64,000 bases of DNA from Rhodoferax sp. WC2427 (GTDB lineage Bacteria > Pseudomonadota > Gammaproteobacteria > Burkholderiales > Burkholderiaceae_C). Each line of letters begins with the position of its first letter. Within the stretch, counting starts at the first letter, position 1. The translations under genes were made by a program, and so were the position numbers. This document shows positions 48,670 to 51,242 of the stretch, piece after piece. Under the pieces are notes generated by a model that saw nothing but the letters and a program-made list of their open reading frames with translations, did not search any database and was not told where the DNA came from. The stretch spans positions 2,542,001 to 2,606,000 of the forward strand of contig NZ_CP162006.1 in the NCBI RefSeq assembly GCF_040822085.1, given 5' to 3'.

Positions 48670-49515
48670 ATGGCCGACATCTTCCTGAGCTACAACGAAA
48701 AGGACCGCCCACGGGTGCGCCAACTGGCGCAGGCCCTGGAACGCGCGGGCTGGTCCGTCTGGTGGGACCGCCGCGTGCCTGCGGGCCTGACCTGGCGCAG
48801 CCTGCTGGAGCAGGAGCTGCAAAACATGCGCTGCATGCTGGTGCTGTGGTCGAACAACTCCGTTAAAAGCGAATGGGTCTGCGAAGAAGCCACCGAAGGG
48901 CGGCTGCTGGGGCGGCTGATCCCGGTATTCCTGGAGCGCGTGCGCCCGCCCGCCGGGTTCCGCGAGGTGCAGGCCGCCGACCTGGTGGACTGGGACGGCA
49001 CCAGCGACACCATTGGCCTGCAGCAACTGCTGGACGACATTGCCCACAAGTTGGGCAACCCCGCCGTGCAGCCGCCAGACCCGGCGCTCCGCGTGGCGGC
49101 GCAAGCGCCCCCGCCACCCCAGCCCACGCCCACCCTCTGGAATCCGTGGAAACAGGGGGCATGGATGGCCGCACTGCTGCTGGTGGCCGTGGGCATCTAC
49201 CTGGGCGTGGGTGCCGTGAAGCACCGCGAGGCCGTTGTCCCGATGGCAGACCCGCCCGCCGCCAGCACGCCCAGTGCCGCCGTGGTGGCCGAGCCGCCCA
49301 CCTTTGGCATGCCCACCACCCTCCCCAACATGGCCCCCGCCACACCCGCGCCGGTGGTCATCGCCGCCACACCCCCCGCAAAACTACCGCCTGTAACGGC
49401 TGCCGCTCCGGCCAAACGCACGCTGCCGGCCCGCTGCAACGCCATCCACGATCGCCAGGGTCTGGGCGAAACCCCGTCGGCGGCAGACCAGGCCTTTTTG
49501 AACAAGGAGTGCTAG
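48670..49515 (+). CDS. TIR-domain transmembrane protein
   Basis: A 281-residue protein. Residues 1-~135 form a TIR domain: box 1 ADIFLSYNEKD, then GWSVWWDRRVPAG, VLWSNNSVKSEWVCEEATEG, with Trp69 and Glu73 in the W-x3-E spacing of the catalytic Glu of NAD-cleaving TIR domains (SARM1, bacterial TIRs). One transmembrane helix (~167-187, MAALLLVAVGIYLGVGAV) follows a Pro-rich linker; then a Pro/Ala-rich presumably periplasmic stretch ends with a small motif having two Cys (ARCNAIHDRQGLGE ... LNKEC). The TIR would face the cytoplasm. First of three tightly packed genes. Immunity or signalling is inferred. Confidence 0.87.
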   Translation: MADIFLSYNEKDRPRVRQLAQALERAGWSVWWDRRVPAGLTWRSLLEQELQNMRCMLVLWSNNSVKSEWVCEEATEGRLLGRLIPVFLERVRPPAGFREVQAADLVDWDGTSDTIGLQQLLDDIAHKLGNPAVQPPDPALRVAAQAPPPPQPTPTLWNPWKQGAWMAALLLVAVGIYLGVGAVKHREAVVPMADPPAASTPSAAVVAEPPTFGMPTTLPNMAPATPAPVVIAATPPAKLPPVTAAAPAKRTLPARCNAIHDRQGLGETPSAADQAFLNKEC

Positions 49516-49517
49516 CC

Positions 49518-50750
49518 ATGCCACGCCTCACCCTCTGCGCATTGCTGACCGTGCTCGCCGCCTGCACCCGGCTGCCGCTGCCCGGCCCGGCAACACCCCC
49601 GACCCCCGTAGCCGCCGCGCCTGCGCCCCCACCGGCCGCAGCGCCCGCGGCCCCGCCACCGCCCACCCTGCCCTTTGACGAGGCGGTCACCAGCGCCGCC
49701 ACCGCGCTGCTGAACAACGCCCGCCTGCCCGGCCCGCCGCGCTACACCGTGGTGATCGACCCGCTGGTGGACGGCATGACCGGGGCCCAGTCCAACGCCA
49801 CCCGCTCCATGGGCCAGCGGCTGGAGGCCATGATCCGCGCCCAGTACCCGCAGTACGACCTGCAGCCGTTTACCGCCGCCAACGTGGCGCGCAGCCCGCT
49901 GGTGCTGATCGGCACCTTCACCGGCGTGAACGCGGCACGGCAGACGGCAGGCGTGCGCGAGGCCTTCCGCATCTGCTTTGCGCTGGCCGACCTGAAGACC
50001 GGCAAACTGGTCAGCAAGGGGCTGGCCTTCTCGAAGCCCGAGGGCGTGGACAGCACGCCCCTGGCCAGCTTCCGCGACGCGCCCGCCTGGACCGAAGACC
50101 CGGCCACGCAGGGCTACATCCGCACCTGCCAGGGCACGCGCGCGGGCGACCCGATCAACGCGCTCTACACCGAGCGCATCGTCGCCGCCGCCCAGGTGGC
50201 CGAGGCCATGGAAGCCTACGACGCGGGCCGCTACCAGGAGGCGCTGGACCTGTACACCAGCGCCCAGCGCACCGCAGCCGGCGACCAGTTCCGCGTCTAC
50301 AACGGCATCTACCTGGCGCAGTGGAAGCTGGGGCGACGCGACCGGGCCGAGGCCGCCTTTGGCAAGATCGTGGACTTTGGCCTGGCGCAAAAACGCCTGG
50401 CGGTGAAGTTCTTGTTCCGCCCTGGCTCCACCGCCTTTGGCACGGACAACCGCCAGACCGAGGCCTACCCGCTGTGGCTCAAGTCCATCGCCACCCAGAC
50501 CGCCAGCAGCCCCGCCTGCCTGGAGATTACCGGCCACACCAGCGCCACCGGCCCCGAGCCGCTGAACGAACGCCTGTCGCAGCTGCGCGCCGAATACGTC
50601 AAAACCCGCCTCGAAGCCAGCAACCCGACCCTGGCCAAGCGCAGCATCGCCAACGGGATGGGTTCGCGCCAAACCCTGGTGGGCAATGGGCGCGACGACG
50701 CCTCGGATGCGCTGGACCGCCGGGTGGAGTTCAAAGTGATTGGGTGCTGA
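49518..50750 (+). CDS. OmpA-family lipoprotein of the TIR cassette
   Basis: A 410-residue lipoprotein: signal peptide with lipobox LAAC (Cys16), a Pro/Ala linker (~20-55), a conserved domain (YTVVIDPLVDGMTGAQS, LVLIGTFTGVN) resembling FlgO/CsgG-type outer-membrane lipoproteins, a TPR-like stretch (EAYDAGRYQEALDLY), and a C-terminal OmpA-like domain (FLFRPGSTAF, GHTSATGPEPLNERLSQLRAEYV). The peptidoglycan-binding Asp of GHTD is Ser here, while the Arg of LSxxRA is kept. It starts 2 bp after the TIR stop and abuts the next gene without a gap. It may couple the outer membrane or cell wall to the TIR protein (inference). Confidence 0.83.
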   Translation: MPRLTLCALLTVLAACTRLPLPGPATPPTPVAAAPAPPPAAAPAAPPPPTLPFDEAVTSAATALLNNARLPGPPRYTVVIDPLVDGMTGAQSNATRSMGQRLEAMIRAQYPQYDLQPFTAANVARSPLVLIGTFTGVNAARQTAGVREAFRICFALADLKTGKLVSKGLAFSKPEGVDSTPLASFRDAPAWTEDPATQGYIRTCQGTRAGDPINALYTERIVAAAQVAEAMEAYDAGRYQEALDLYTSAQRTAAGDQFRVYNGIYLAQWKLGRRDRAEAAFGKIVDFGLAQKRLAVKFLFRPGSTAFGTDNRQTEAYPLWLKSIATQTASSPACLEITGHTSATGPEPLNERLSQLRAEYVKTRLEASNPTLAKRSIANGMGSRQTLVGNGRDDASDALDRRVEFKVIGC

Positions 50751-51242
50751 ATGGCCACCGCTCTTGATCTGCTGCGCCAGGCCAAAGCCGCTTACGGCGC
50801 CGAGTACGAAAAGCACCTGTTCGAGCAGTACAAGCTCTACGTGGACATGGCCGACCGCATCAGCGCCCGGCGCATGCTGGCCAACTCGTTCTTTGTGGGC
50901 GTGCACACCGCGCTGATCACCGCCTTTACCGTGATGCTGAAAGAGAAAGTGCTGCAGCCCACCCTGACCGGGCTGGCGCCATTCCTGGCGGTGGTGTTGC
51001 TGTGCTTCATCTGGTGGCGGGTGGTGTACTCGTACCGCCAGCTCAATTCCGCCAAGTTCAAGGTCATCCACGCGCTGGAGCAACTGCTGCCCGCCGCGCC
51101 GTTTGATGCGGAATGGACCGCCCTGGGCCGCGGCACCGATGCCCGCCGGTACCTGCCGCTGACCCATGTGGAAAACTGGGTGCCGGTGTGCTTTGGCCTG
51201 CTGTATGTGCTGCTGGGGCTGACGCTGTACACGGTTAGATGA
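50751..51242 (+). CDS. RipA-like small integral membrane protein
   Basis: A 163-residue protein starting directly after the lipoprotein stop. The cytoplasmic N-terminus YGAEYEKHLFEQYKLYVDMADRISARR is followed by three hydrophobic segments (~45-64, 76-96, 141-161). It resembles proteins called RipA-family octameric membrane proteins, named after Francisella RipA; this recognition is from memory of the N-terminal pattern. The packing with the TIR and OmpA-type genes implies a joint function. A copy of the dispersed repeat starts at its stop codon. Confidence 0.75.
   Translation: MATALDLLRQAKAAYGAEYEKHLFEQYKLYVDMADRISARRMLANSFFVGVHTALITAFTVMLKEKVLQPTLTGLAPFLAVVLLCFIWWRVVYSYRQLNSAKFKVIHALEQLLPAAPFDAEWTALGRGTDARRYLPLTHVENWVPVCFGLLYVLLGLTLYTVR

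What the first reader, a model, noticed from the sequence alone, without database searches (positions are those of the whole stretch)
48670..51242. Three-gene TIR / OmpA-type lipoprotein / RipA-like membrane cassette: candidate envelope-spanning immune or signalling system
Three genes packed with gaps of 2 and 0 bp encode a TIR protein with one transmembrane helix, an outer-membrane lipoprotein with an OmpA-like domain, and a small multi-helix membrane protein. TIR domains of bacterial defence systems cleave or cyclise NAD, and the catalytic Glu pattern (Trp69-x3-Glu73) is kept. A cytoplasmic TIR tethered through the membrane, with a cell-wall lipoprotein and an oligomer-type membrane protein, would suit sensing at the envelope (phage adsorption or wall damage). 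I know no named defence system with this exact trio; I have only a vague memory of similar lipoproteins next to TIR genes elsewhere.
Basis: partly seen in the sequence, partly recalled or inferred. Interest (0 to 1): 0.87.

Follow-up and report, generated by a model that had tools for sequence, protein, structure and literature searches.

The report
TIR enzyme paired with envelope lipoprotein
Three neighbouring genes look like a signalling unit spanning the bacterial envelope: an immune-type TIR enzyme inside the cell ends in a short tail that related bacteria also put on kinases and ATPases, always next to the gene of the same kind of wall-anchored lipoprotein, and a third membrane protein that is often found beside TIR genes completes the set.

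Summary
Observation confirmed: a TIR protein, an OmpA lipoprotein and an 8xMP (RipA-type) membrane protein lie packed with gaps of 2 and 0 bp. Of 8 genus genomes, 5 have all three, 2 have TIR plus lipoprotein, 1 has none. A search of 250 whole family genomes gave 35 strong tail matches, all 35 directly upstream of a homologue of this lipoprotein gene. The tail also ends Ser/Thr kinases, AAA_22 ATPases and proteins without known domain; a model of TIR tails alone recovers these. In the lipoprotein tree the TIR clade is nested beside kinase-linked rows. 8xMP is a separable add-on: TIR-adjacent in 17 of 25 loci read, but in only 2 of 10 genomes of an unbiased class sample. Best reading: a modular trans-envelope receptor whose cytoplasmic enzyme here is a probably active TIR, with 8xMP its likely membrane partner. 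Immunity is plausible, not shown: no defence genes were recognised among 10 flanking genes, and envelope homeostasis remains a rival.

The parts
48670..49515 (+). TIR protein (281 aa): TIR domain, one TM, Pro/Ala-rich linker, two-Cys C-terminal tail
48679..49032 (+). TIR_2 domain (residues 4-121)
   Evidence: PF13676 E 1.3e-24
48886..48888 (+). Glu73 codon, aligned with the Glu of the AbTIR W-x3-E motif
49162..49218 (+). single transmembrane segment (residues 165-183)
   Evidence: hydropathy
49429..49512 (+). conserved C-terminal tail (residues 254-281) with Cys256 and Cys281
49518..50750 (+). lipoprotein (410 aa): lipobox, alpha/beta domain, TPR-like helices, OmpA domain
49563..49565 (+). lipobox Cys16 (LAAC; Thr at +2 suggests outer membrane by the Lol rule, recalled)
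   Evidence: read; Cys16 nearly invariant in the 34-row alignment
49650..50042 (+). N-terminal alpha/beta domain (about residues 45-175) resembling PelC and LpoB
   Evidence: pLDDT blocks 72-89 over 41-170 except 55 at 81-90, then 66 at 171-180; Foldseek PelC 5t11/5t10 and LpoB 4q6l, E 0.008-0.016, prob 0.99-1.00
50154..50405 (+). TPR-like helices (residues 213-296)
50478..50747 (+). OmpA domain (Pfam match residues 321-394, drawn to the C-terminus)
   Evidence: PF00691 E 9e-10
50751..51242 (+). 8xMP / RipA-family membrane protein (163 aa); model helices 19-64, 73-110, 138-161
   Evidence: PF24838 E 1.4e-42; model pLDDT 85.5

Best explanation
A modular trans-envelope signalling unit. The TIR enzyme faces the cytoplasm, is anchored by one TM and reaches into the periplasm by a Pro/Ala-rich linker ending in a two-cysteine tail. 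The tail docks on the lipoprotein encoded next to it, which is held in the outer membrane by its lipid and on peptidoglycan by its OmpA domain. A change in outer membrane or wall alters that contact and switches TIR NAD processing on. The 8xMP protein, which elsewhere often sits beside ThsB-type TIR genes, is the inner-membrane partner that responds to or localises the TIR output. Shown by sequence: gene linkage, the tail-lipoprotein gene pairing, exchange of the cytoplasmic domain (TIR, kinase, AAA ATPase), conserved W-x3-E residues, recurrence of 8xMP beside TIR genes. Inferred: topology, tail-lipoprotein binding, NAD turnover, the stimulus, the role of 8xMP, and the outcome (growth arrest or death, or an envelope response).
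For: Pairing: the tail model searched in 250 whole family genomes gave 35 matches at E <= 1.6e-10, all 35 directly upstream of a lipoprotein homologue, and 5 more only at E 0.0015-0.0097 (positions compared one by one). Held-out test: a model of 117 TIR-protein tails, in 3350 ORFs, gave 30 hits at E < 0.01, all directly upstream of the lipoprotein gene; 26 of them are kinase, AAA or other proteins not in the model, 4 are TIR proteins; a model of 21 kinase tails found 117 of 120 TIR proteins at E <= 0.01. Swap: TIR clade 100/100, joined with three kinase-linked rows and one partnerless row at 100/95. Shared layout of domain, TM, Pro/Ala-rich linker and tail in most of the nine partners checked. 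A caspase-domain lipoprotein with a tail-like end, seen by eye, lies directly upstream of a lipoprotein homologue in another family. W69/E73 in 120 of 120 rows. 8xMP beside TIR genes in 17 of 25 loci read. PelC/LpoB-like N-domain.
Against: No interaction or activity is shown. 16 of 51 lipoprotein ORFs lack a recognised tail upstream: 5 have a WD40-caspase gene downstream, 4 a kinase upstream, 7 neither (one of these at a contig end). Of four lipoprotein loci in two other families, one has no partner in view, one is cut by the contig end, one has a kinase two genes away, and no tail there reached the model threshold. 8xMP is missing in 2 of 7 genus genomes with the pair, and in an unbiased class sample only 2 of 10 genomes with 8xMP have a TIR gene beside it in the about 1.5 kb seen. 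The lipoprotein model is poor overall (pLDDT 66.1) and no fold match reaches E 0.001.
Confidence: 0.5

Rival explanations
1. Anti-phage abortive-infection system: the lipoprotein senses phage adsorption or wall damage, the TIR depletes NAD or makes a signal, and 8xMP forms a pore.
For: TIR with conserved NADase-type residues; 8xMP beside ThsB_TIR genes in several lineages, once on a plasmid with a type I restriction gene next to it; TIR genes with SLATT proteins predicted to be nucleotide-responsive pores (PMC7159879, passages).
Against: No defence gene recognised among 10 flanking genes; shared chromosomal flanks in several trio genomes; kinase and ATPase versions of the unit do not point to phage defence as such.
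Confidence: 0.3
2. Envelope homeostasis rather than immunity: the unit monitors outer membrane or wall synthesis and adjusts it through TIR-made nucleotides; 8xMP tunes lipid A synthesis, as proposed for RipA with LpxA.
For: N-domain resembling LpoB and PelC; the same unit with Ser/Thr kinases; RipA reported to affect LpxA abundance (PMC4322802, abstract); purifying selection.
Against: TIR domains are rare in envelope control (recalled); 8xMP relatives of 67-81% identity adjoin TIR genes in loci where I saw no lipoprotein homologue of this kind.
Confidence: 0.3
3. 8xMP is a hitchhiking gene without functional link to the pair.
For: Absent in 2 of 7 genus genomes with the pair; close 8xMP relatives occur with another TIR family.
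Against: Gap 0 bp; kept in 5 genomes with two different flanks at dN/dS 0.055-0.30; recurs beside TIR genes in 12 loci outside the genus.
Confidence: 0.15
4. The TIR is only a protein-protein adaptor without NAD activity.
For: TIR domains can be scaffolds (recalled).
Against: W69 and E73 unchanged in 120 of 120 rows.
Confidence: 0.12

Closest known systems
Thoeris (ThsB TIR plus effector)
   Same: TIR gene next to a partner gene; ThsB_TIR is the Pfam name of the 8xMP neighbour in 7 of 8 outside loci scanned
   Different: The window TIR is TIR_2, with ThsB_TIR below cut-off (18.9 versus 21.2 bits) and ThcB4 far below (22.2 versus 220); it is membrane-anchored beside a lipoprotein; no ThsA match in the genes tested
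TIR plus SLATT conflict systems (PMC7159879, passages)
   Same: A TIR with a small helical membrane protein, predicted there as a nucleotide-responsive pore
   Different: 8xMP is not SLATT by NCBIfam (12.3 bits versus cut-off 41); no lipoprotein or tail in the passages read
iSTAND systems with TM plus PEGA/OmpA/PASTA domains (PMC7159879, passages)
   Same: Conflict-type proteins joined to peptidoglycan-associating domains
   Different: There the wall-binding domain follows a TM in the effector; here it is on a separate lipoprotein
RipA of Francisella (PMC4322802 outline and abstract; PMC2767360 listing)
   Same: The 8xMP family is what NCBI names RipA family octameric membrane protein (name seen)
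   Different: Three RipA-like loci of one family showed no TIR gene in the about 1.5 kb seen
PelC and LpoB outer-membrane lipoproteins
   Same: Fold resemblance of the N-domain
   Different: OmpA domain and TPR-like helices added; other gene partners
Zorya ZorB
   Same: OmpA-type C-terminal domain (E 4.4e-6)
   Different: Match confined to the OmpA part; no ZorA match in the genes tested

Membership tests
8xMP (PF24838) | Profile match above gathering score | tested here: met
   145.2 bits versus 30
8xMP (PF24838) | Octameric assembly | not testable with these tools
   no complex modelled
TIR NADases | TIR domain with conserved W-x3-E | tested here: met
TIR NADases | NAD cleavage or cyclisation | not testable with these tools
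   needs an assay
Thoeris | ThsB_TIR profile above cut-off | tested here: not met
   18.9 versus 21.2 bits; PADLOC ThsB models match only the TIR part, best E 7.7e-5
Thoeris | Adjacent ThsA-type effector | tested here: not met
   no ThsA match in the cassette or 10 flanking genes
SLATT | Profile match above cut-off | tested here: not met
   12.3 versus 41 bits
Zorya | ZorA and ZorB core | tested here: not met
   only an OmpA-part match to ZorB and no ZorA match
PelC/LpoB fold | Structural match of the N-domain | tested here: inconclusive
   five PelC or LpoB chains among Foldseek's top eight, E 0.008-0.016, none at E <= 0.001
Tail plus lipoprotein unit (defined here) | Two-Cys tail gene directly upstream of the lipoprotein homologue | tested here: met

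The most novel reading that the evidence does not exclude
A new class of bacterial envelope receptor: a two-Cys periplasmic tail and its cognate LpoB-like/OmpA lipoprotein act as a common plug, into which evolution has inserted TIR, Ser/Thr kinase, AAA ATPase and perhaps caspase domains, so that one envelope sensor drives immune or regulatory outputs; with TIR, a TIR-responsive 8xMP membrane effector is recruited.
Probability: 0.4. Interest if true: 0.9.

Novelty: new variant of a known kind. Interest (0 to 1): 0.77.

Why it matters
Bacterial TIR systems with known triggers mostly sense events in the cytoplasm (recalled). A TIR wired to the outer membrane and wall would be, by analogy only, a bacterial counterpart of membrane Toll-type signalling. 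Because the same tail and lipoprotein are linked to kinases, ATPases and TIR in different genomes, what the sensor part detects can be tested in several settings. It also gives the little-studied 8xMP family a concrete hypothesis as a TIR partner.

Tried and rejected

Limits of the counts. Six tree labels (L062, L064, two rows each of L063 and L071) were set by hand; L084 was dropped as too short. Kinase, AAA and WD40-caspase labels rest on Pfam for 8, 4 and 2 loci and on similarity to these for the others. The 117 TIR tails of the held-out model were cut out with the joint model, and the 4 TIR hits are not held out. In the dN/dS script the window's lipoprotein row carried about 180 codons upstream of its start, so its four pairs are less exact. 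L102-L104 (two not found by the core 8xMP profile, one at E 3.1e-4) are outside the 25 loci; L086 and L088 repeat G039 and G243 and were not counted twice. Most of the 25 loci were found by likeness to the window protein. The two tail-like ends were noted by eye only.

Literature: searches and 101 of an open-access library listed no paper that I recognised as describing this trio, the tail, or 8xMP in defence; one search was swamped by unrelated papers, and subscription papers and preprints are not held, so this is no proof of absence. Seen: PMC7159879 passages; PMC4322802 outline and abstract; all others as listings.

Full report
Observation. The window lies in a 4.78-Mb single-contig genome; names of close homologues point to Rhodoferax/Albidiferax. 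Pfam gives TIR_2 (1.3e-24), OmpA (9e-10) and 8xMP (1.4e-42), each above its cut-off. The TIR protein has one hydrophobic segment (165-183); the lipoprotein has the lipobox LAAC (read). Trp69 and Glu73 align with Trp and Glu of AbTIR. Over P0001 and its 119 best listed homologues (528 were found), Trp69, Val70, Glu72, Glu73 and Trp108 are the same in 120 of 120 rows, and 117 of 120 have the C-terminal tail described below.

Conservation of the trio. In the 8 genomes of the genus held, own included, the TIR protein and the lipoprotein match in 7 and 8xMP in 5. The three are contiguous in G000, G039, G243, G569 and G571; G162 and G570 have TIR plus lipoprotein without 8xMP; G568 has none. G039, G243 and G569 share znu-type transport genes downstream with the window, with extra genes in between; G571 has other flanks. 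Over the 10 genome pairs dN/dS is 0.20-0.39 (TIR), 0.09-0.31 (lipoprotein) and 0.055-0.30 (8xMP) by a Nei-Gojobori script.

The shared tail. In 250 genomes of the family, 8xMP was found in 5 and the lipoprotein in 39. In the fetched neighbourhoods plus the window there are 51 lipoprotein ORFs. Proteins encoded directly upstream differ in their cytoplasmic part but end alike, roughly R-C-x3-[IL]-x-[RK]-x2-LGE-x-L and a last Cys about 25 residues after the first. Pfam shows Ser/Thr kinase, AAA_22, TIR_2 or nothing. Labels on the 50 tree rows: kinase 26, AAA 5, WD40-caspase 5 (gene downstream), TIR 4, TM-only 2, short ORF without known domain 2, none 6. Of the 51 ORFs, 35 have a recognised tail ORF upstream; of the other 16, 5 have a WD40-caspase gene downstream, 4 a kinase upstream (two of these with degenerate tail-like ends by eye), 7 neither, one of them at a contig end.

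Specificity and circularity. A search of the same 250 whole genomes with the tail model (31 rows from the fetched loci) gave 35 matches at E <= 1.6e-10; I compared each with the lipoprotein positions, and all 35 lie directly upstream. Five more matches have E 0.0015-0.0097; one of them (G223:C55) falls in the degenerate end of the L049 kinase. Because most training rows came from these loci I made split models. A model of 117 TIR-protein tails, searched in 3350 ORFs, gave 30 hits at E < 0.01, 4 TIR and 26 other proteins, all directly upstream of the lipoprotein gene; five weaker hits followed, four adjacent and one not. A model of 21 kinase tails found 117 of 120 TIR proteins.

Reach. In 321 genomes of the class the lipoprotein model matched 4: the window's own and three in two other families. 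Their four loci show: a kinase with a tail-like end two genes upstream (L168); a caspase-domain lipoprotein (PF00656, 1.9e-34) with a tail-like end directly upstream (L171); one cut by the contig end (L170); one without partner in view (L172). Neither tail-like end reached the model threshold. The caspase protein starts with a lipobox-like signal (read), so its end should lie outside the inner membrane; with the lipoprotein partner this is my argument for a periplasmic tail. G570 holds three versions of the unit: TIR, AAA and WD40-caspase.

Domain exchange. In the lipoprotein tree the four TIR-linked rows form one clade (100/100). With three kinase-linked rows and one partnerless row they form an eight-row clade (100/95), and with the five WD40-caspase rows a larger one (98/96). 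So one lipoprotein lineage changed partner between kinase and TIR; the direction is not settled.

8xMP. The model has helices at 19-64, 73-110 and 138-161 (pLDDT 85.5); no solved relative was found. In 25 core 8xMP loci a TIR gene is immediately adjacent in 17 (5 in this genus, 12 outside); in one an annotated TIR gene lies about 2.5 kb away (L107), in one the TIR_2 match is below cut-off (L109), in 6 none was seen. Pfam calls the neighbour ThsB_TIR above cut-off in 7 of 8 outside loci scanned. Against this: in the unbiased class sample 10 of 321 genomes have 8xMP and only 2 of the 10 have a TIR gene beside it in the about 1.5 kb seen.

Mechanism. I favour a receptor in which tail and lipoprotein form the periplasmic sensor and the cytoplasmic domain the output; with TIR the output would be NAD turnover, and 8xMP the membrane partner, by analogy with SLATT proteins predicted to be nucleotide-responsive pores (PMC7159879, passages). 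RipA's reported tie to LpxA (PMC4322802, abstract) keeps an envelope-homeostasis reading alive. Nothing here separates immunity from homeostasis, and the lack of recognised defence neighbours does not favour immunity.

Verdict. Real, conserved, and more interesting than the finding said, because the cassette is one version of an exchangeable trans-envelope unit. No Pfam or NCBIfam model covered the tail in the proteins scanned, and the literature searches named under Tried and rejected listed no description. I score it a new variant of TIR-type signalling, with a fair chance that the tail-lipoprotein unit is a new receptor class.

Noticed in passing
L045, L046, L047, L056, L069, L130: WD40 plus caspase (Peptidase_C14) genes directly downstream of lipoprotein homologues that lack the upstream tail gene (Pfam run on L045 and L046, the others by similarity).
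   Followed up: partly
L092:4520-7218: Ideonella locus with several TIR or TIR-like genes around an 8xMP gene.
   Followed up: no
L038:7259-8290: Low-GC3 (0.38-0.45) ThsB-like TIR plus 8xMP pair beside a recombinase-like ORF in a high-GC genome, suggesting horizontal arrival.
   Followed up: no
L132:5323-6954: Second TIR protein of G162 (543 aa) beside a 1842-aa ORF; the tail model does not match it.
   Followed up: no
L129, L130, L131: One genome (G570) carries TIR, WD40-caspase and AAA versions of the lipoprotein unit.
   Followed up: partly
L050, L051, L053: Kinase-lipoprotein pairs lie near genes that look like MoxR and VWA/Bat types (labels recalled from the sequence, not searched).
   Followed up: no
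L053:4328-7069: Kinase domain and tail of this partner lie in different reading frames; described only.
   Followed up: no
L102, L104: Distant PF24838 members without TIR neighbours that may form a separate subfamily.
   Followed up: no
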